Of a stretch of DNA of 64,000 nucleotides, positions 629-64,000 are shown piece by piece. Location: the NCBI GenBank assembly GCA_029834535.1, contig JAQMWT010000336.1:18902-82901 (forward strand). Reading direction: 5' to 3'. Position 1 is the first letter of the stretch. Every line of letters begins with the position of its first letter. The translations under genes and the position numbers were made by a program. Source of the DNA: Chrysophaeum taylorii. Its lineage: Eukaryota > Sar > Pelagophyceae > Pelagomonadales > Pelagomonadaceae. The notes below the pieces were generated by a model that worked only from the letters and a program-made list of their open reading frames with translations, had not been told where the DNA came from and did not search any database.

Positions 629-1777
629 TCAGGGGAGAGAGCCGACGTGGAGTTGGTTGGGGTTGGGCCCGCGCGGGAGCTTGTGGATTGGGTGGTTTTT
701 TGGGGCGCGGCGGCGGCGGTGGTTGGGAGGTTCGGCGTGGAGGTCATCATCTAGATAATCGTGATGGTCGGGGTCGAGGACGTAGTTGGCCATCATGCAG
801 ACCGCGTCGGTTTCGACGCAGAGGGAGGAAAGGTCGGCACGCGCGTAGGTAGCCTTGGGGAGGTCGATGTGATTGAGCTTGTCGAAGGTGGTGACGTGCT
901 TTAAGCCCGCGGCGTCGGCGAACAAGGTGACGACGATACGCTTGGGTTTGAAGACGCTGAGGACGTTTTTGAGGAGCGAGGTGTAGGACTTGAGGGGGGT
1001 GTTTGTCTCGAAGGAGGCGTAGGAGCACGATGGCTCGGGAGTGACGTGGACGGTCGTGTAGCTCCCGTAAACGAGGCTATTCATCGAATAGCCGCACGGC
1101 GCGAAGGCCCGCGCGTCGACTTTGGCCCCGACCAGATCCCCGAGGCCCGATCGCTGCGTCATGATATTCCCAGTCTCTTGATCGTCGATTTCGCCTGGTT
1201 TGAGGTAAAATTGTTCTCGAACTTCGTCGGCCAAGTCGAACATCATCACGTTGACCGTCCGCTCCGTCTCGAGCTCCGAGGGACGCTCGCACTGGTCCGA
1301 AATGAAGACGAACCAGTGGTCGCCCGTCATCGGACCGAGGACGTATCCGCTTCCGCAAATCGGGTGTGCCTTGAGGTACGAGAGCTCCTCGTGGAAGCTC
1401 GTGTGCGGCGACGTCTGATCGTCGGGAAAAACGAAATTTTTCCGCGAATATCCTACCCACTCGACCCGCATATCGAGGGTTCCCGTGTACTCGAGCAGCT
1501 TCCGGAGCGACCTGAGCAAAGTCGTCCGTCCGCACGTCTTGATCACCCACTTGTATTTGTAGACGAACAACGACGACTCGGACAGCACGTAAGCGTCGAG
1601 ATACTCGTTGGATATTTTCGAGAGGATCTCGCATCTCGCCTCGGCGAGAATCGCGTCGAGGGCACCGCGACCCAGGGCGCGACACCCCTCGCCACACGGC
1701 GCGAAGCACACTTCCAACGTCTTCTCGGGGCCCTCGAAGCTTGCAACTTCCGTCATCTTGAACTCCTCGAAGATCAT
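629..1777 (-). CDS. AMD1: S-adenosylmethionine decarboxylase proenzyme
   Basis: Decarboxylates S-adenosylmethionine to give the aminopropyl donor for spermidine and spermine synthesis, in the cytosol. The 382-residue product shows the family landmarks: FEGPEK near residue 14 with the two N-terminal glutamates (15 and 18), YVLSESS with the Glu67-Ser68 self-cleavage site that generates the pyruvoyl group, KTCG with Cys82, the CGYSMNS serine motif and the HVTPEPS histidine motif further on. The pyruvoyl Ser and Cys82 fall at the same numbers as in the animal enzyme. Start: ATG at 1777; Met8 is an alternative. The C-terminus runs about 40 residues past the conserved core and is Asp/His/Arg/Pro-rich. 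A short uORF ends 4 nt upstream. The gene is head-to-head with the aminotransferase fusion at 1999. Confidence 0.95.
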   Translation of the reverse strand: MIFEEFKMTEVASFEGPEKTLEVCFAPCGEGCRALGRGALDAILAEARCEILSKISNEYLDAYVLSESSLFVYKYKWVIKTCGRTTLLRSLRKLLEYTGTLDMRVEWVGYSRKNFVFPDDQTSPHTSFHEELSYLKAHPICGSGYVLGPMTGDHWFVFISDQCERPSELETERTVNVMMFDLADEVREQFYLKPGEIDDQETGNIMTQRSGLGDLVGAKVDARAFAPCGYSMNSLVYGSYTTVHVTPEPSCSYASFETNTPLKSYTSLLKNVLSVFKPKRIVVTLFADAAGLKHVTTFDKLNHIDLPKATYARADLSSLCVETDAVCMMANYVLDPDHHDYLDDDLHAEPPNHRRRRAPKNHPIHKLPRGPNPNQLHVGSLP

Positions 1778-1781
1778 CGTG

Positions 1782-1850
1782 TCAGCTGATCGCGTCGTTC
1801 ACGGAGAACACGTCCCCCCGCGCCGTCACCACTGAAGCCCACCAGGGCAT
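1782..1850 (-). promoter_or_regulatory. Short uORF directly upstream of AdoMet decarboxylase
   Basis: On the minus strand an ATG at 1850 opens a 22-codon frame (begins MPWWASVV, ends VNDAIS) whose TGA ends 4 nt before the AdoMet decarboxylase ATG. Eukaryotic AdoMet decarboxylase mRNAs are well known to be translationally repressed by polyamines through small uORFs, although this peptide does not match the animal hexapeptide or the plant uORF that I know. That it is a regulatory uORF is inference from position. Confidence 0.5.
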
Positions 1851-1998
1851 AAAGAAAGAGCAAGCCCGACAACAATCGTCGACGATCGACGATGTTAATA
1901 AAATTACACCACACACGAAGCCACTGGCGAACCAAACAACAACCCCTAGTAGTAAAGTAAAAGGGGTAGGCACCTTGAAACCCTCTTCTTCTGAAAGG
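1851..1998. promoter_or_regulatory. Shared intergenic promoter region, AdoMet decarboxylase / aminotransferase fusion
   Basis: Only 221 bp separate the two divergent ATGs (1777 and 1999), so the region must hold both promoters or one bidirectional promoter. No clear TATA box is recognised. Confidence 0.4.
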
Positions 1999-3669
1999 AT
2001 GACGACCACCACCAGTAGTGTGACTATCCACTGCTGGGCTACGCCTCGGTGCTGCTCGACGTCGCTGATGTACTCGTTCGGGAGCCGGTCGGACACGCAG
2101 TGTATCGACGAGCCGTTGTACGCGTCGTATCTCGCGAGACACCCCGAGGTCGAGCGCGCGTACCGGACCGAGGTCCTCGGGGCGCAGGACGCCGACGGAT
2201 CGCGCGTGATCGCGGGGCTCGTCGGGCGCGAGGGCGGCGTGACCTTCGTGAAGCACATGTCGAAGCACGCTGCGGGACTCGATTTGCGGCCGTTGTTTTC
2301 GGATCCCGGCGCGCGGCACGTCTTGCTGTTCCGCGAACCCGTCCGACAGATCGCGAGCTTCGCGGAAAACGAGGCGACGGGTCCCGTAACCCTCGAAGAG
2401 CTCGGGGTCTCGCAGCTCGTGAGCATATTGTCGTCCGTGCCGACGGCGCTGAGGGTCGACTCGGAGGACTTGATCGCGAACCCTCGTCGCGAATTGGAAC
2501 GCGTTTGCGACTTTTCCGGAATCCCGTTCGATTCCGCGATGCTTTCGTGGGAGGCGGGGCCCAAGCCCTTCGATGGTCTTTGGGCGCCCTACTGGTACGA
2601 GACGGTCCATCGCTCGACGGGGTTTTTGGCCGGGTCTCGAAAAAAAAAAAAGCGAAGGCCTTTGGCGCCGCCGCTCGTCGAGCTCGCCAAACTCGCGTGG
2701 CCTTTCTACGCGTGTCTGGCCCGCCGCGAACCCACGCAAAGTCTCCTCGGCCTGAACGACAACCTGCTGGTATGGGTCGGTCCCCCCGGAAAAGGCCGGC
2801 TCGTACCGCGAGACTACGCTTCGGCTTCCGTGTTCGACGGATGCGTCCAAGGCGGCGACGCGTGCTGGGAGGGCCTCCGGGTCTACCGCGGGCGCGTCTT
2901 CATGCTCAAAGCGCATCTCCGGCGCCTCCTGGACTCGGCAAAGGCCCTGTGCTTCGAAAACGCCCACTCCCGAGACGAAATCAGGGCGGCACTCTTCGAG
3001 ACCCTCGCCGCGAACAATTTCTTCGACGCCGCTCACGTCAGGCTCACGCTGACGCGGGGGGAGAAGCTGACGTCCTCGATGAACCCCAAGTTTAACATCT
3101 ACGGCACCACGCTCATCGTCCTCGCCGAGAAGAAACCGGTGGTGTCCCCTGCGACCTACGACAACGCGGAAGGCGTTTCGCTAATCACCGCTCCCCAACG
3201 CCGAAATCCCCCGCAGTGCTTGGACTCTAAGATCCATCACAACAACCTCCTCAACAACATCCTCGCAAAGCTCGCGGCCAATCAGTGCGGGGCGAGCGAC
3301 GCGATCATGTTGGACGTCGACGGCTTCGTCAGCGAGACCAACGCCACCAACTTGTTTATGGTCAAGGCTAACCGCGTCGCGACGCCCGCGCCCGACCACT
3401 GCCTCCCGGGCATCACGAGGGGTCTCGTCATCCAGCTCTGCGACGATTTGGGTATACCCTGCGAAATCCGCCGCTGCTCGCTCGCCGAGTTTCACGCGGC
3501 CGACGAAGTTTTCACCACCGGTACCATGGGCGAGCTCACGCCCGTCGTCCAGATCGACGCTCGGACGATCGGCAAAGGTGTCCCTGGTCCTGTCGTCGCC
3601 AACCTCCGCCACGCCTTCGACCTTCTCACGCACCGAGACGACCTCTCCGACCCTATTGACCTTCAATGA
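1999..3669 (+). CDS. Sulfotransferase-like / branched-chain aminotransferase-like fusion protein
   Basis: A 556-residue two-domain protein. Residues about 8-215 resemble the P-loop sulfotransferase-like fold: IHCWATPRCCSTSLMYSF carries the phosphosulfate-type P-loop, and a FREPVRQIASF segment follows. Residues about 250-550 are a fold-type IV PLP aminotransferase of the branched-chain/D-amino-acid class, with the Schiff-base lysine in SKIHHNN (Lys411) and the PLP-contacting Glu446 in SETNATN. The same domain order and length occur in plant 'branched-chain aminotransferase-like' proteins. The start is the ATG at 1999, because the frame upstream has only TTG. A homopolymer A run at about 2640-2651 encodes a Lys-rich linker between the domains. 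Substrate unknown; a role in transamination of branched-chain or methionine-salvage keto acids is possible. The missing classical sulfotransferase 3' motif was not checked. Confidence 0.88.
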   Translation: MTTTTSSVTIHCWATPRCCSTSLMYSFGSRSDTQCIDEPLYASYLARHPEVERAYRTEVLGAQDADGSRVIAGLVGREGGVTFVKHMSKHAAGLDLRPLFSDPGARHVLLFREPVRQIASFAENEATGPVTLEELGVSQLVSILSSVPTALRVDSEDLIANPRRELERVCDFSGIPFDSAMLSWEAGPKPFDGLWAPYWYETVHRSTGFLAGSRKKKKRRPLAPPLVELAKLAWPFYACLARREPTQSLLGLNDNLLVWVGPPGKGRLVPRDYASASVFDGCVQGGDACWEGLRVYRGRVFMLKAHLRRLLDSAKALCFENAHSRDEIRAALFETLAANNFFDAAHVRLTLTRGEKLTSSMNPKFNIYGTTLIVLAEKKPVVSPATYDNAEGVSLITAPQRRNPPQCLDSKIHHNNLLNNILAKLAANQCGASDAIMLDVDGFVSETNATNLFMVKANRVATPAPDHCLPGITRGLVIQLCDDLGIPCEIRRCSLAEFHAADEVFTTGTMGELTPVVQIDARTIGKGVPGPVVANLRHAFDLLTHRDDLSDPIDLQ

Positions 3670-56389: not shown

Positions 56390-56480
56390 GTCGACGTTTA
56401 AAGACACCATACCTCTCACATCTTTCATGACCCCCACACCCCTCTTAGCAGTCGACCTTTAAAGACACCATCATGCCTCT
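56390..56480. repeat. Imperfect direct repeat with CAGTCGAC-TTTAAAGACACCAT
   Basis: The motif occurs at about 56390-56412 and again at 56450-56472 with one mismatch, followed by related CTCTC stretches. Seen directly. Confidence 0.8.
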
Positions 56481-57125
56481 CTCTCTTGTGAGAAGCAATT
56501 TTGTAGCATTCTTGCTATCGTATACCATCTCTCCATCTTGCTGAGAGGCTTGGTGAGCGTGAGCAAGGTGTGTGGATGGCATATCCGACCCCGAGTCCGT
56601 CTTTTCCTCGTTCAGTGAGGTCTAGGACGAGTCGGTGAGCGCCCCCTTTGTCACCAGGGGGTCGGGAGTGGTTTTTCTGTGCCGCCATACGTGGTGGAGT
56701 ACACGAGATCGTGCGACTACACCGGTCGCCGACGAACGAGTGCTGCCGTACGTATTGTATTACGTGGTCCGGATTTGCACGTGTGCCCTGATCAAGCACG
56801 CGGAGTTCCAGTGGACCGGTTTGCGTTGAGATATACGCGGACTTTATTGTGCTCGTGCGTTCCGAGAGACGACGAATACGCGTGCGAGTTGGAAATCGCA
56901 GCGCATTCTCCCGGGAATTGATTTTGGTAGAGCTGAACGGCGGAAGCTGTTAGCGAGTGGGATCGCTACCCACGGGCATTTTGGGGCATTTTGGATTGCC
57001 AGCGGATTGGAATTCCGTGAGTGCTGTTTTTACAGCGACAGATAGCGTTGTTGGGATCAACGTGCATTACTTCGAGTGGTCGGATCCGGACGTGTTTCGA
57101 GATTCGCATCGACATTTGATATAGT

Positions 57126-58991
57126 ATGGATACAGACGCAGACGTGCGTGAGGAAGAATCTCCTCCAGTTCTTCCCGCCGCCCCTGAGATAGGCCGCGAG
57201 GAAGGTGAATTAAGAGAGGCCGAGGCAGTCGACGTTGCTGACTTGCCCCCTGACGTGCCTCCGGATACTGCCATTTTTTCGCCGTTGAGTCCAACGACCC
57301 CGGACCGTGGCGAGCGTGTTACGATTGAGCGCGGATCTGCGCAGCCCGAAGTCGACTTCGTGAAGACCTCGAGCGGAGACGTCGCGAAAATGAACGATTA
57401 GCTGAGCGTTTTGCCCGTGAAAGGGCTGAAGCGAAAGAGGAAGCGGCTCGACGGGAAGTTGACATGCTCAATGATGCATTGCAGCAAGAGATTGAGACAT
57501 CGAAGACCCTACGTGAAGAGGTTGAACGATTTCGTCGTGAACGAGATGAATTGTTAGCCGAACGTACGCGTCGTGAGAGTAGCCGCGAACGACCCGTGAG
57601 TCGACCCGAATCGGAAACGCCCGTGAGGCCGCCTGAACCGGAAAGGAACAAGGAAACGGGGAATGAACCTCCGCCCCGAGTCGATACGGAGACTGAGGGT
57701 AGGGCGGAAGCTGAGGATGAAGGTACGAAAATTTTACGGGGATTATCGCGGGGAATAACGCAGACGGTTGCGGACGCCTTCGAAAAGGCCAACTTGAGCC
57801 GATCCCGTCGCCCCACTTCCAGTTTGAAGCCTGACAACTTCAAACTCGTCATCGACGGCCGGGATTGACGGCAACTCAATTTGGATTCGGCAGCGGTGAT
57901 GCATACTTTAGCGGATGACCATTACTCGGTCGAGAAATTACATTACTTATTACCGGTGCATCTACGGGACACCGTTGCACCAATTTTTGAGGAACACTTG
58001 CAGAAATACGGGGAGCTCTGCGATGAGCTACCGCACGGTCCGTCGTTTTACTTGAAATTGGATGCTGACGATGAAGAGCATGGAGCCTCGGTTCGTCGCA
58101 TCCGTCGTCTTAATCAGACGTATTGCGATAAAATTCTGGATTACTTTAGATCGACTTGCCGACCTCCGAGCACGCAGCAGGAGCTGCTCGACAAGCTGCG
58201 GAAGGTCACCCAGGCTGAAGAAGTCTGGGGAGCGGCACGTGCAGACGTATTGTACCAAATTTCAATCGGAAGCCTTGGCTTTTTGTTCCGTGTCCAGCCG
58301 CACGATGGATGATGTCGATATCCTCGACCAGCTTATCAGTGGGTTGACATCCAAGGAGTTGAGGACCCGTGTGCGGACTATGAGGAGCGGACATCCTGAT
58401 AGTTACTTGACTTTTAAGTCGATGGTGGCGCTTATTACGCGGCTCGAGAACGACATGCGAAAGTTGATGGAGGAGGAGAAGGACCAAGGCCCTCCTAATC
58501 CGAAATCGAATAAACCGCCGCGAGGGCGGGGAGGTCGAGCTATGGCCTCCGATCAACAAGCCAAGCAAGATGCGGATAAACCGTCTGGGAATACGGATCC
58601 GCTGATTTTACGAGATCCTTCTTGGTGGTGCAAGAAGACGCGCAAGGACTGCGAATTCTTCTGGACCATCCATGATGAAGATGAACACGGAAATCGCGTG
58701 GTTTGCAACCGCGATCCGGACCGTTATTACTGTGCGATGTGGAAGCGCATTCGAAAGCAGAAGAAGCAACCCATATCGCGTTCCGATTGGGAGAAGCGTG
58801 ATGATGCATCTCATGCGAACGCCACGCGCGGATCGGAGCCTTCTAATGAAATTCAAACGGCCCTCACCGAGCTTGGAACCACAATGGCGACCATGGTGAG
58901 CGAGGTCAGAGGCATCAAAGATATCAAATCGCCTTCTACTCGACAGCGAGACGGACGATCACCTTCTAGACGATCGTCGCGCCGACATTGA
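57126..58991 (+). pseudogene. Retroelement gag-like region (interrupted)
   Basis: ATG at 57126 (MDTDADVREEESPPVL). After a +1 shift near 57370 the frame carries a coiled coil (RERAEAKEEAARREVDML, REEVERFRRERDEL); an in-frame TGA follows near 57866; then DSAAVMHTLADDHYSVEKL and, after another shift near 58200, VQTYCTKFQSEALAF and DILDQLISGLTSKELRTRV, typical of the retrotransposon gag capsid region. A Cys/His cluster (WWCKKTRKDC ... DPDRYYCAMW, 58624-58740) stands where nucleocapsid zinc knuckles are expected, though spacing is unlike CCHC. Ends at 58991. Confidence 0.7.
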
Positions 58992-59529
58992 AGCAAGAGC
59001 CCTGATCGAAAGGCCAATACTCCTCAAACCAGCCCGAGTCCCCGCCGTCGCCGCCATAGCCGGAGCTCTAGTCGCAATTCGCGCCGGCACAGACGTCATC
59101 GACAACGCGATGACGAATATGACGGAGGCCGATATCAGGATAGTTCGGGACATTCGAGCGCAACTTTCGCGTTCCAATCTTTATGCGACGCGCCGCCATC
59201 GTCGAGAGTTGTCCTTTACCCGACGGCGCGCCCCGCCCGAGTCTCCGATGATGTTGCCGATGCCGCTGTGACGAGCAGCCATCGCTTGCAACAGGAGCAA
59301 AATACCACCAACGCTCGGATCGTTCGGTGGCCTTCTACATCGTATGTGGAAGCAATATCAGATGCCACTTTGGATTCTCCGCACTACTGGGAAGACTCAG
59401 ATTCGGAGACCGACGAACCCATGCCGCAGGTTCCAGTGTCCCCCCATTCGTCAATGTGCATGTCTTGCATGGCAGTTCACGATGATGACGTTAGACCTTT
59501 TTGAGTTGACGTCGGGGACGATATCTTCT

Positions 59530-59639: not shown

Positions 59640-60398
59640 ACTACAGCGGCGCCGATGGAGGAGAAGTTGACGGGGATGTCCGATTTGATGGACGAGAAAC
59701 GACGATTGCCAGAAGAGATAAAGGAGGAAATATATGTGCCTCCGATTGATAAGTGTCAGAATTTGTTGTCAGCGAAACTGGGGAATGAGGAAGCAGCCGA
59801 AGCGGCGAGCGCCAATATAGATTCAGAGGCGAGATGCGGAACGCCAGATATGGCAGCGGTGACGATGCAGATGCCGGGCGATGCGAAACCGGAGATACGA
59901 TGTCATCACACTGCACTTTCGCCGAGCGATGGGGAAAAGATCGAGCAAGACCTCATCACCATCGGTTCTTTGGACCCTGGTACACTTACGTTTATAGTTG
60001 GTCATATTTACAGACGACGAGACGGGCCGAAGTTCGCAACGACTTTACGCGTGGGTGGAATGGCTGAAGTCTCCTATATTTGTCGTGGGATGGTCGAAAA
60101 ACTGGCAAAGGATAGTATCATCCTTGACCGGGGCGATCTTCCAGTCGAGCGCACCCTGTATGGGTCAGGATTGAATAAGACGACTATCCGCAAATGGGTC
60201 GCATTGCGAATTGCGCTCGCGGGCGACGTGGCCGTTCCAGTTGTTGCCATTGTGGCCGATTCTAATCATCTATTTTTGCAGGGAGCGCGCGATATTCGGG
60301 TGTTGGGAGCCATAGCGGACTACCCGCGAAATCGCATTGCGCTTCTCCGCACACAAGTCGCCTATGGGCGCAAGAAGTTAAAGGTACAGGATCGATGA
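59640..60398 (+). pseudogene. Retroelement protease-like domain with altered active site
   Basis: The frame (first codon TTG at 59622, no ATG needed within a polyprotein) is Glu-rich then ends with a domain like gypsy aspartic proteases: AEVSYICRGMVEKLAKD, LNKTTIRKWVALRIALAG, VAVPVVAIVAD, LFLQGARDIRVLGAI. The residues before AEVSYI read RVGGM, whereas aspartic proteases need a D-T/S-G triad there, so the catalytic Asp is missing in this copy, either by mutation or local frame damage. Confidence 0.6.
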
Positions 60399-60697: not shown

Positions 60698-62080
60698 GTG
60701 CCAGTCGCTCTTTCAGAGCTCATGGAAACCGGGCTAGTTTTCGTTGCTACGTCTTCTGGGTACGAGCAACTCGGGGTAGTCGATGGAATGTGTTCTTCTC
60801 CTGAGGATCATGATAAGTTCGCAGATCGAGTGGCGATATCCTCTATCCAGGATGTGCCGACCGTGATTACTCAAGGTGAAGTTCTCGCTTAGGGCGATAT
60901 TGTTTGTTTTGATGACGAGCTGAATGCTGAGACTGTCGACGATTTAACGAAGGATGGTGAAGCCGAATCTAACAAGGCTAACCTATCATTCACTGTTTCG
61001 GTCGCAAGCCACCTGACTCAAGGCGATGCGGCTCCCGAACCGATGCTTTTGAGCTCGGTGCAGAAGGCGTCTCCTTCTGCCGATAAGAAGAAGAATTCTC
61101 GTCAAGAATCGCTCGGTAACGACGATTTCAACCGACGAACTGACGAGGAGGAAAAGAAAAGCCGAGAAGTTACAGAAGGCGAGATTCGCCGAAGGTTTGA
61201 AAAGGTCCACTGGGTGCCGATCACGTATCGCAAGGTTGTGATGCTCTTTAGCGGCACCGGAGGAAGTACTTTAGGACTGCAACGAGCGAGTGAGTTGTGC
61301 GGGACGTCGTTTCGAGTCGTCCTTGCTCTTGACTCTTCAACAGCTGCCAACAAGGTTCATCAGAAGAATTTTCCGAAGATACCTGTGGTTCAGCACACGC
61401 TCCGCGGACGATATGACTCGACCCTCCGATTGATCAAGGCTTATTTGCCTGAAGCAGAATGGTCATCGTCGATGTGTATAGCGTCTCCACCCTGCGTTTA
61501 TTCCGCACTCTGCAACTTGACATCCAGAGATGTTGGCAGGGGTGTTACGGCCACTAACTGGACGATGAAGCTGTGTAAAATGGCTGGCTTCATGATGTGG
61601 CTGATTGAACAGGAGGCGTCCCCATTATTTCTTATATAGCGCGTTTACACCCTTACGTGTACGTCGTCAATTTTCATGATATCACGCCCACTCTGATGAG
61701 CTCTCGCGTGCGATTGTTGGTTTCCAGTCACCTACTGCACTTGCAAGAGGCTCCGAAGACATGCGTGAATATGCAACAAAAATTTGCTGCAGCTTTAGGT
61801 TACGCTCATGAACGCCACCTGCTCCAGCTGAATAATCTCGGCTCGTCGAGAGAAGCAACAGATACGGCTTACACCGATACGCGAGTTCCTCTTCGTTTGG
61901 GACCGCATCGCTCGGACACTCAGCCTTTGACTCTCGAGATGACGGCCGAGTTGCTCACGATGCCGGTGGACCATGATTGGGCTAGCTTGTCTAAGACAGA
62001 TTCGTTCAAACATTTAGCGCCTGTCGTCCCTCCAGACACTCTTGCGATTTTAGCAGTCGATCTGCACAGTTATTTGCGAA
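60698..62080 (+). pseudogene. C5 cytosine DNA methyltransferase domain inside the retroelement
   Basis: The domain transfers a methyl group from S-adenosylmethionine to cytosine C5. Frame 60698-61639 (one in-frame TAG at 60890-60892): a Lys/Glu-rich leader, then motif I LFSGTGGSTLGLQ (61244-61282), VVLALDSSTAANKVHQKNFP (motif II region), and catalytic motif IV ASPPCVYSALC with Cys codon at 61493-61495. A frame change near 61637-61660 leads to MSSRVRLLVSS (motif VIII, 61694-61726), TAELLTMPVDHDW (motif IX region, 61942-61980) and LAPVVPPDTLA (motif X, about 62013-62045). Motif order is normal (I, IV, VIII, IX, X); target-recognition region is very short. It lies between the protease-like and reverse transcriptase segments of a gypsy element. 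Not a host gene: no own promoter, same strand and same style as the flanking pol. Confidence 0.8.
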
Positions 62081-63500
62081 TCTCCGACACCACCTTTCGT
62101 CACGTACAGACTCCGCTGTTAAATACGCGTACTCGTGTCGTTAAGTTGGTGTCAAAAGATGATCTCCAGGATCCCACTAAATGGGAACCGCCAGAAGCCC
62201 CTATGCTTCCGCTTCCAACAGATGCGCCGGGGACGGCTCATGCTTTTTCTGCTGCCCCCCCCCGACAATCAAAAGTGGACGTTCCGCCGGATCCTGAACC
62301 TGAACAGGAGCCGAAAGTAAGGAGCGAGCCGAATGTGCGCGTCAAAGGTGAAAAGATCAATAAGAGCCACCCTGAGGTGAGGTTCAAATACGAAGAAAAG
62401 TTCGATGTGCCATGGAAGGATGCGCCGCGTGATGCGGACGGTGTACCGTTACCGCAGACTCCGGAGCACGTCAAGGACAATGAGGCGATGAAAGTCGTAA
62501 TTCCGACGAAGGAAGAAGTCGAAAAGGTTGTTCGAGAACTGGGAATTCCCGACAACCCGCATCTGGATGATGATGCGAAGATGATGTTGAGCCACTGCGT
62601 GCAATACGCGTGGGCTTTTTTTGATCCGATTATGAGACCCGTGGACTCGCCACCGGTTTCTCTACGATTTAAAGACGCAAACCCACGACCGATCAAGATG
62701 ACGCCTTATAGGTTGACGCCAGCAAAGCTCGAGTGTCTCAGAAAGCAGATCACTGAGTGGTGTCGCGATGGAGTCATCCGACCGGCGAACTCTCCGTGGG
62801 GATTCCCTGTACTGATGCTGCCTAAGAAGGGAGCAGAGGCCGGGACGTCGAATGCTTTTCGTGCTGCAGTTGACTTGCGTCAGCTCAATGATCAGCTGGT
62901 CAATGACAGTTGGCCGAATATTCGTCAAGATGATGGCTTTTTTTGCCATGCGCCGTTGGCGGACGTGCATTGATATTCGATGGGGTTATCATAACCTACG
63001 TTTGGACGCCGCTGCTCAGGGCGCCGTTACGATGGTTAGTCCACTTGGAGCCCCATAGTTTCTTGCGCTTGCGCTCTAACTAGAAAAACAGCAGGAGCTC
63101 TCTTTTGTAAGCAGATTGAGCTAGCGATTTGTCCACATGGATGTATAAGGACTTGGTCGCGTTTGTCGACGATATTATGATGGGATCGGATGAACTCCAC
63201 CGACATTTACAAGTTTGATTGAAGTGAGTTGTGCCATTTAGCACAGCGAGGATATAGTGGACGAACTTCGAAGTTCCACCTCCTCAAGGATGAAATCGAG
63301 TTTTTGGGACATATTTCGACTCCGGAAGGCTTGAAGCCGAATCCCAAGACGTTTAGAAGCGCTGCAGCAGATGCCGATTCCCGGTACGTTGCCTAACACG
63401 TCCCCGAAGACCCAGATTCGATCTTTCATCGGCATGAGCAACTATTGCCGCCGATATGTGAAGAATTATTCGAAGATTGTGGAGCCGCTTAGGCGATTGT
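62081..63500 (+). pseudogene. Ty3/gypsy reverse transcriptase
   Basis: Continues in frame from the methyltransferase (438-codon frame 61657-62973). After a charged linker (62090-62490) come RPIKMTPYRLTPAKLECL, ITEWCRDGVIRPANSPWGF, PVLMLPKKG and FRAAVDLRQLNDQLV (the Asp of motif A region), then in shifted frames IRWGYHNLRLDAA (62970-63010), the catalytic FVDDIMMGSDE box (63160-63192), LLKDEIEFLGH and SFIGMSNYCRRYVKNYS (thumb). At least three frame changes occur. Fingers-palm-thumb order is that of gypsy elements. Confidence 0.8.
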
Positions 63501-64000
63501 GTCTTGAAGGCGTTAAGTTTGAGTGGACGCCTGAGTGCCAAAAGGCATGGGACACGATCATCGAAGCTTGGTGGACTCTCGCGGAGTTTATCATCCTGAC
63601 TACGATCTTCCTTTTCAGATCCGCTCGGATGCTTCCAAGGATGGTCGGGCGCGTATCTTTTTCAGCTCGTGGAAGTCAAGGACGAAACCGGCAAGGTGAC
63701 ACGAGAGGAACGAGTAATTGAGTATTGGAGCCGAGCTGTGCCGAAAGAGATGCGGAACTATGAGCCTCGCCGGCTAGAGCTACTGGCAGTTCTTTCGCTC
63801 TTGAGCATTTCCGCTCTTATATCGAAGGTCAAAGACGATCCTTGAAACGGATCATCGCAACTTGACGTTTTTACGAAAGGCGAAGCACTCGTCTGGGCAG
63901 TTGGCTCGATGGGCGATGCGGCTCGCCAATTTTGATCCTGAATTGGGCTACAAACCAGGAAAGTCGCCGGGAATGAGTATACCTGACTGTCCTCTCTCGC
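63501..64000 (+). pseudogene. Ty3/gypsy RNase H, truncated by window end
   Basis: KAWDTIIEAW, then IRSDASKDGRARIFF with the catalytic Asp (about 63618-63660), RVIEYWSRAVPKEMRNYEP, and LETDHRNLTFLRKAKHSS, GQLARWAMRLANFDPELG (about 63836-63955). Frame changes near 63610 and 63835. The element continues past the window. Confidence 0.8.

What the first reader, a model, noticed from the sequence alone, without database searches (positions are those of the whole stretch)
60698..62080. Cytosine DNA methyltransferase domain embedded in a Ty3/gypsy retroelement
Seen: motif I (LFSGTGG), motif IV catalytic ASPPC, motif VIII (SSRVRLLV), and IX/X-like blocks (TAELLTMP, APVVPP) on the same strand between a protease-like segment and a gypsy reverse transcriptase, sharing a reading frame with the latter. 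Known: retrotransposon-encoded DNMTs have been described in dinoflagellates and charophyte algae, in distinct retroelement classes, with evidence that they can methylate CG sites de novo. Inference: this is another, probably independent, acquisition in a different algal lineage. A retroelement that brings its own methyltransferase could mark its own copies, which is a paradoxical or camouflage strategy against the host.
Basis: partly seen in the sequence, partly recalled or inferred. Interest (0 to 1): 0.95.

Follow-up and report, generated by a model that had tools for sequence, protein, structure and literature searches.

The report
Algal retrotransposon carrying a DNA methyltransferase
A jumping gene with many copies in an alga carries its own DNA-methylating-enzyme domain, kept by selection, and a second, unrelated jumping-gene family in the same genome carries a different one, so mobile elements might be a source of DNA methylation there.

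Summary
The motifs are real, but this copy is decayed: motifs I–VI and VIII–X lie in different frames, its 5' LTR is truncated and its contig ends at window base 64000. The domain belongs to a family: at least 150 places in the window's own genome. One relative has identical 336-bp LTRs around a single 3067-aa frame with the methyltransferase upstream of Ty3-type RT, RNase H and integrase. All 14 open copies scanned match Pfam DNA_methylase; the catalytic Cys is present in 52 of 52 fetched loci; dN/dS between subfamilies is about 0.07. Homology is statistically firm only for the SAM-binding half. Structure prediction failed. No CpG-deamination footprint was found, so self-marking is unsupported. 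Unexpected: a Ty1/copia-type element in the same genome carries a different C5-methyltransferase after its protease-like segment, and the only ordinary host DNMTs found were Dnmt2- and Dnmt5-like. A gypsy DNMT is already known (KnitGypsy-Dnmt3). New variant of a known kind.

The parts
56469..56689 (+). Remnant of the 5' LTR; about the first 90 bases of the LTR are missing or replaced in this copy
   Evidence: Aligns to L047 only from L047 base 289, while the LTR (TGTGGCG...) starts at L047 base 196; 3' end placed by eye at ...GCCGCCATA
56692..56709 (+). Primer-binding-site-like stretch (TGGTGGAG...) just after the LTR; tRNA not identified
   Evidence: Position after the LTR and similarity to the stretch after the 5' LTR of the C5 copy; by eye
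57126..59000 (+). gag-like region, frame-broken here (limits approximate)
   Evidence: MDTDADV at 57126; open in one frame in L033; no Pfam hit passes its curated cut-off
60000..60398 (+). Protease-like segment (resembles a retropepsin by eye only; active-site stretch atypical)
   Evidence: Position between gag and DNMT; no protease hit in Pfam; 64% identical between subfamilies
61151..61639 (+). DNA cytosine-C5-methyltransferase domain, first part: motif I (61244-61264), acidic motif (61322-61342), IV ASPPC (61481-61495), VI-like WLIEQE (61598-61615); then the frame breaks
   Evidence: PF00145 E=2.3e-4; hhalign motif assignment; coordinates; domain start placed by similarity to open copies
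61609..62165 (+). Methyltransferase domain, second part in another frame: VIII-like (61699-61719), IX-like (61921-61944), X-like (62011-62034)
   Evidence: ORF 61609-62973; motif assignment by profile alignment; coordinates; end placed by similarity to open copies
62255..62263 (+). Run of nine C between DNMT and RT; its length and the relative frame of the two domains vary between copies
   Evidence: sequence
62640..64000 (+). Ty3/gypsy reverse transcriptase / RNase H region, frame-broken; cut by the contig end (start approximate)
   Evidence: ORF tail of 61609-62973 and ORF 63335-63721; the corresponding region of L031 matches RVT_1 and RT_RNaseH and Ty3 RT in the PDB

Best explanation
This is a decayed copy of a high-copy Ty3/gypsy LTR retrotransposon family, with at least one recent insertion, whose polyprotein carries, between a protease-like segment and the reverse transcriptase, a divergent ('orphan') cytosine-C5 DNA methyltransferase domain that selection preserves. 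Most likely mechanism (inferred): the domain is made as part of the Gag-Pol-type polyprotein, is released in or near the virus-like particle, and methylates the element's own newly made DNA around reverse transcription or integration. The host's Dnmt5-type enzyme could then perpetuate the mark. Shown: domain, order, copy number, LTRs, purifying selection. Inferred: catalytic activity, the DNA target, and benefit to the element.
For: PF00145 on 14 of 14 open copies at E<=1 and on the L031 piece above cut-off (23.7 bits vs 22). RT, RNase H and integrase of the same frame match RVT_1, RT_RNaseH, Integrase_H2C2 and rve; nearest PDB chain Ty3 RT, E=1.5e-47. Copy number: 150 of 150 scored places match, of 878 candidates; 124 of the 150 rows (the window copy among them) have no stop in the matched part, which ends before motif VIII. 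LTRs of the C5 copy identical over 336 bp; among 40 scored LTR matches of 484 candidates, further pairs by position at C5:544105/554044, C122 and C565. Constraint: dN/dS 0.067 over 266 A-B pairs, 0.028 and 0.038 around motifs IV and VI-VIII. For one copy pair, DNMT 0.051 against RT 0.017, RNase H 0.093, protease-like 0.136. In 52 fetched loci, open or broken: catalytic Cys 52/52, motif VI Glu 51/52, motif VIII Arg 50/52 and 51/52. hhalign over 311 columns puts IV, VI, VIII, IX and X in register.
Against: Motif VI is EQE, not ENV; motif X lacks GN; in motif IV the Ser is displaced (motif definitions recalled). The catalytic half alone is not significant (84-305: 4 of 100 shuffles reach it; 84-363: 52 of 100); with the N part fixed, 1 of 100 reaches the full score. 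Two AlphaFold models failed (pLDDT 32.8 and 39.2); the fold search gave no match at E<=0.001, and no C5-methyltransferase among the 50 rows shown. No CpG footprint. A-B dS is near saturation, only open-frame copies entered dN/dS (biasing it down), and the loci are the best-scoring ones.
Confidence: 0.55

Rival explanations
1. The domain keeps the methyltransferase fold and SAM binding but no longer methylates DNA; it acts as a structural or RNA-binding part of the polyprotein, or methylates RNA (for example the genomic RNA or the primer tRNA).
For: Diverged motifs VI and X. Homology statistics are confined to the SAM-binding half. The only methyltransferases among the weak PDB matches are Dnmt2-type (in 114 GGA1 chains rank higher), and the host Dnmt2 is the best of ten known MTases at only 5.2 bits, the next at 4.2. 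No CpG footprint.
Against: Lowest dN/dS falls on motif IV and VI-VIII; catalytic Cys 52/52 and Glu 51/52.
Confidence: 0.25
2. The enzyme is active but serves to damp the element (self-silencing that limits harm to the host), not to protect its cDNA.
For: Suggested in the literature (PMC5890265 Discussion, read); persistence over the A-B split.
Against: Many open copies with low within-subfamily dS (0.05 and 0.08) and one copy with identical LTRs; no footprint of old CpG methylation.
Confidence: 0.12
3. Passenger domain without function, or a one-off insertion.
For: The window copy itself is frame-broken.
Against: Present in both subfamilies and under purifying selection within the range of the other pol enzymes.
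Confidence: 0.05

Closest known systems
KnitGypsy-Dnmt3 of Klebsormidium nitens (PMC5890265; abstract, part 1 of Results, the charophyte section and the Discussion read)
   Same: DNMT domain inside the Pol polyprotein of a Gypsy element, more than one copy, purifying selection (Ka/Ks < 0.2 reported there)
   Different: There the DNMT is Dnmt3-related and the repeat arrangement is described as that of a DIRS element; here one copy read shows ordinary direct LTRs, the DNMT class is unresolved and the host has a red-lineage-type rbcL. Sequences not compared (not available).
SymbioDIRS-Dnmt3 and SymbioLINE-Dnmt of Symbiodinium (PMC5890265)
   Same: Very many retroelement-borne DNMTs under selection; SymbioDIRS DNMTs reported there to methylate CG de novo
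   Different: DIRS elements use a tyrosine recombinase and LINEs have no LTR; this element has an rve integrase and LTRs
Sola1-1_Ec32 DNA transposon with ParB-like domain plus N4C/N6A methyltransferase in Ectocarpus (PMC12477816, passage read)
   Same: Transposon-borne DNA methyltransferase in a brown alga
   Different: DNA transposon, different methyltransferase class, separate gene
DIRS and other retrotransposons with Dam-like adenine methyltransferase (PMC5890265; PMC6338049, passages read)
   Same: Retroelement with a DNA methyltransferase; PMC6338049 says DAM- and DCM-encoding retrotransposons occur also in Stramenopiles, without separating the two kinds
   Different: Dam-like enzymes are adenine methyltransferases, structurally unrelated to DNMTs

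Membership tests
Ty3/gypsy LTR retrotransposon | Two direct LTRs flanking the element | tested here: met
   C5 copy: 336-bp LTRs, 100% identical, TGTGGCG...CGCCACA; the window copy has only a 5' remnant
Ty3/gypsy LTR retrotransposon | Ty3-type RT and RNase H followed by an rve integrase | tested here: met
   L031 pieces: RVT_1 1.3e-12, RT_RNaseH 8e-26, H2C2 1.5e-18, rve 6.8e-12 in that order; PDB Ty3 4ol8 1.5e-47
Ty3/gypsy LTR retrotransposon | Retropepsin | tested here: inconclusive
   Protease-like by eye only; no protease hit in Pfam
Ty3/gypsy LTR retrotransposon | Target-site duplication | tested here: inconclusive
   None seen at the one copy read
C5 cytosine methyltransferase (PF00145) | Profile match incl. 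motif I SAM-binding site | tested here: met
   14 of 14 at E<=1, best 5.5e-6; 23.7 and 26.4 bits vs cut-off 22 for two copies whose bits were shown; 21.2 for the window copy. NCBIfam dcm only 18 bits, far under its cut-off
C5 cytosine methyltransferase (PF00145) | Motif IV Pro-Cys nucleophile | tested here: met
   52 of 52 fetched loci; aligned with known PC
C5 cytosine methyltransferase (PF00145) | Motif VI ENV | tested here: inconclusive
   Glu kept in 51 of 52, but the motif reads EQE
C5 cytosine methyltransferase (PF00145) | Motif VIII R-x-R | tested here: met
   50 and 51 of 52 for the two Arg
C5 cytosine methyltransferase (PF00145) | Motif X Gly-Asn (usual in the family as recalled; not a condition of the Pfam match) | tested here: not met
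   Reads Ala-Ser at the aligned place
C5 cytosine methyltransferase (PF00145) | Methylation activity | not testable with these tools
   Needs an assay
KnitGypsy-Dnmt3 family | DNMT domain groups with Dnmt3 | tested here: inconclusive
   No Dnmt3 chain among the seven PDB matches up to E=10; no KnitGypsy sequence held; no tree built
SymbioDIRS-Dnmt3 (DIRS) | Tyrosine recombinase and split repeats | tested here: not met
   rve integrase and direct LTRs

The most novel reading that the evidence does not exclude
In this alga the host's own DNA-directed DNMT is only a Dnmt5-type enzyme (maintenance-type in Cryptococcus), so retroelements supply the genome's de novo cytosine methylation. Two unrelated LTR elements, gypsy and copia, each captured a different C5-methyltransferase at the same polyprotein position (after the protease), imprint methylation on their own DNA, and the host maintains it.
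Probability: 0.12. Interest if true: 0.92.

Novelty: new variant of a known kind. Interest (0 to 1): 0.66.

Why it matters
Retroelements that encode a cytosine methyltransferase, the kind of enzyme used to silence them, are described in the papers I saw from dinoflagellates and a charophyte (PMC5890265). Searches of an open-licence library listed no paper whose title or abstract start reports a DNMT-bearing LTR element in an alga of this kind, although PMC6338049 names Stramenopiles among hosts of DAM- or DCM-encoding retrotransposons without detail. A further lineage, with two LTR superfamilies carrying different enzymes in one genome, would mean the capture is recurrent and useful to the element. 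If the host really has only Dnmt5 and Dnmt2, it would also make a standing question testable: where new methylation comes from in genomes that seem to lack a de novo enzyme.

Tried and rejected
Rejected: a one-off insertion; chance motifs; a DIRS or LINE element.

Led nowhere: three protein searches over the large protein set found nothing for the gypsy DNMT (at E<=1e-3, at E<=1) or the copia DNMT; this says little about eukaryotes, since this genome's own copies were not listed either. A viral contig scan found no relative. AlphaFold twice gave unusable models, and the Foldseek matches to the second are not interpretable. The DNMT class stayed unresolved. Host naming by 18S failed because the Rfam search did not complete. 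Paper searches by assembly size gave nothing usable. One search's count for subfamily B was spoilt by one row (L071) on the wrong strand; one search replaces it.

Rows left out of dN/dS: of the 30 loci L001-L030, 16 fitted the open-domain pattern; L011 and L017 were dropped for indels, leaving 14; L033 was left out as the same copy as L023; L002 and L004 are near-duplicates. B used 19 of 22 (L069 indel, L070 two stops, L071 missed by a filter that looked for KKC at the start or SPPC; 16 of the 19 start with KKC). Because that filter could favour the catalytic motif, the residue counts in this report are the unfiltered ones (52 loci: L001-L032 and L052-L071; L033 left out as a duplicate). Copia dN/dS used 9 of 11 loci over about 185 codons (L042 and L044 dropped).

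Full report
The observation. The five named motifs are present on the + strand between 61244 and 62034. In this copy the first ORF (60893-61639) carries motif I, the acidic motif, IV and the VI-like stretch, and the second ORF (61609-62973), in another frame, carries VIII, IX, X and the start of the RT region. PF00145 is hit at E=2.3e-4, 21.2 bits, just under the cut-off of 22. The copy is a real but frame-broken example. It has a 5' LTR remnant lacking about its first 90 bases, and it ends where its contig ends (window = C336:18902-82901 of a contig of 82901).

The family. A search of the window's own genome (70.8 Mb, 697 contigs) with the 248-aa ORF scored 150 of 878 candidates and all 150 match; 124 of the 150 rows, the window copy among them, have no stop in the matched part (the query ends before motif VIII). 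Two subfamilies appear: A (most rows above about 80% identity) and B (about 70% to the window ORF). A search with the B domain scored 112 of 1084. All counts are lower bounds. One B copy (C5:520043-530330, minus strand) has two identical 336-bp LTRs with TGTGGCG...CGCCACA ends and one open frame of 3067 aa. Its pieces match, in order, DNA_methylase, RVT_1, RT_RNaseH, Integrase_H2C2 and rve. The RT region is nearest to Ty3 in the PDB (1.5e-47). No target-site duplication is visible at that one copy. A second copy on C5 with a 3063-aa frame also lies between LTR matches. The segment upstream of the DNMT looks like a retropepsin by eye, but no profile confirms it.

Is it a C5-methyltransferase? 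All 14 open copies of A1 match PF00145 at E<=1 (best 5.5e-6). Two PHROG DNA-methyltransferase families match at 1e-6 to 1e-8; NCBIfam dcm matches only at E about 0.0016, far under its cut-off. These hits cover only motif I to the acidic motif. hhalign of 33 copies against ten C5-methyltransferases (eight virus-encoded proteins annotated or matching as such, plus the host Dnmt2 and Dnmt5 domains) gives probability 95 over 311 columns. It pairs PPC with PC, LIEQEAS with LMENVPA, SSRVRLL with the QxRxR stretch, LTLEMTAELLTMP with motif IX and HLASVVPP with motif X. Against column shuffles the full profile and the N part are beyond 100 of 100. The C part alone is not significant (4 of 100 for 84-305; 52 of 100 for 84-363). 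With the N part fixed and the C part shuffled, 1 of 100 reaches the real score. So the SAM-binding half is secure, and the catalytic half is likely but diverged: motif VI reads EQE and motif X lacks GN. Structure prediction failed twice and the fold search was uninformative. The class is unresolved: the only methyltransferases among weak PDB matches are Dnmt2-type (E about 0.2 to 0.4), below GGA1 chains; the host Dnmt2 leads ten known enzymes at only 5.2 bits; no Dnmt3 chain appears up to E=10.

Selection. Between 14 A and 19 B open copies, dN/dS is 0.067 (266 pairs). It is 0.028 around motif IV and 0.038 across VI-VIII, and 0.14 to 0.19 towards the C end; in the TRD-like stretch dS is saturated. 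Overall dS is about 1.9, so near saturation. Within A it is 0.26 and within B 0.22. Only open copies were used, which biases the values down. For one A-B pair the DNMT (0.051) lies between RT (0.017) and RNase H (0.093), below the protease-like segment (0.136); for integrase dS was saturated. Protein identity of that pair is 82% in the DNMT, 96% in RT, 85% in RNase H, about 83% in integrase, 64% in the protease-like part; the region just upstream aligns at only 28.5% and gag not at E<=1e-5. The domain has thus been in the element since before the A-B split and behaves like the other pol enzymes. In 52 fetched loci, open or broken, the catalytic Cys is present in 52, the motif VI Glu in 51 and the two motif VIII Arg in 50 and 51; these loci are the best-scoring ones.

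Does the element mark itself? CpG is not depleted (observed/expected 1.17 in A copies and 1.30 in the L031 stretch, against 1.27 in window bases 1-56000; the copia stretch L051 is lower, 1.05). Singleton C>T changes are not significantly enriched at CpG in A (34 of 254 sites against 54 of 558, Fisher p=0.14) or in B (10 of 163 against 26 of 309). This speaks against long-lasting CG methylation with deamination. It does not exclude short-lived, non-CG or well-repaired methylation.

A second case in the same genome. A PF00145 search scored 123 of 474 candidates and found 57 matches. Two are host-type: a Dnmt2 (PDB 1g55, 3.9e-39) and an enzyme matching PDB 7r76 at 3e-143, listed there as 'DNA repair protein Rad8' and known to me as Cryptococcus Dnmt5. 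Of the other 55, ten were cut out (L036-L045) and nine of the ten carry the same open methyltransferase with TLPC and VEN motifs. One longer stretch, around another of the 55 (L051), shows the context: a protease-like LIDGGAS segment by eye, the methyltransferase (2e-8), a weak rve match (0.002, under cut-off) and a Ty1/copia-type RT, RVT_2 5.1e-39. dN/dS among nine copies is 0.135 (36 pairs). The gypsy and copia enzyme profiles do not align to each other significantly (E=0.47). So two LTR superfamilies here carry different C5-methyltransferases, both placed after the protease-like part. The copia architecture was read in one copy only, and no direct repeats of 60 bases or more were found in the stretch held. 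No copia or Dnmt5 fragment lies in the window at E<=1e-4.

Host. The plastid contig carries an rbcL that I read as form ID; its best PDB matches are, by my recollection of those entries, diatom Rubiscos. I read this as a red-lineage plastid, probably an ochrophyte; the species is not identified. The six-frame DNMT search can miss multi-exon genes, and 45 of its 57 matches were not cut out by it (one of these was later read as L051), so 'only Dnmt2 and Dnmt5' is provisional. Passages of PMC9998398 report DNMT6 as widespread in stramenopiles and DNMT3 as absent from most; no DNMT6 was recognised here, which may be a miss.

Comparison. KnitGypsy-Dnmt3 is the closest described system: a DNMT in the Pol frame of a Gypsy element, with Ka/Ks below 0.2, but Dnmt3-related and with a DIRS-like repeat arrangement (PMC5890265; abstract, part 1 of Results, sections 9 and 11 read). 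Dinoflagellate cases are DIRS and LINE. A 2025 survey mentions retrotransposon DNMT3 members in 'LTR Copia and DIRS', citing the same paper (PMC12344493, section 5 read). In an Ectocarpus DNA transposon a different methyltransferase class was noted (PMC12477816, passage). [quoted passage not shown]). Searches listed no paper whose title or abstract start reports a DNMT-bearing LTR element in an ochrophyte. Dnmt5 is called a maintenance enzyme, and Cryptococcus is said to lack de novo activity, in passages of PMC10538959; loss of diatom DNMT5a correlates with global loss of methylation (PMC9998398, abstract passage).

Mechanism. Shown: a conserved methyltransferase-like domain within an LTR element's polyprotein, in frame with RT in L031, high copy number, a recent insertion, purifying selection. 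Inferred: release with pol products and action on the element's own nucleic acid. Speculative: that such enzymes seed methylation that the host Dnmt5 maintains.

Noticed in passing
L051:1597-7452 (G000:C96:61500-71400) and loci L036-L045: A second family, Ty1/copia-type (RVT_2 in L051), carries a different C5-methyltransferase between a protease-like segment and a weak integrase match; nine of ten further loci cut out carry the same enzyme open.
   Followed up: partly
L034:1498-2577 and L035:1006-3537: Host DNMTs found: one Dnmt2-like and one Dnmt5-like; no other ordinary host DNMT among the 12 loci cut out of the 57 matches.
   Followed up: partly
window 62255-62263; L001-L033: A C run between DNMT and RT is 5 to 11 bases long in most copies read (none of 5 or more found in L010 and L022), and the relative frame of the two domains differs between copies. 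It could be decay, assembly error or a slippage site.
   Followed up: partly
window 60000-60398; L031, L033: The protease-like segment has an unusual active-site stretch (DGM where DTG/DSG is usual, as recalled); no protease profile matches.
   Followed up: no
G000:C5:520043-530330: LTRs are identical but no 5-bp target-site duplication is visible at the flanks.
   Followed up: no
window 1762-3669: One open frame joins a sulfotransferase (PF19798) and a class IV aminotransferase (PF01063), a fusion not familiar to me.
   Followed up: no
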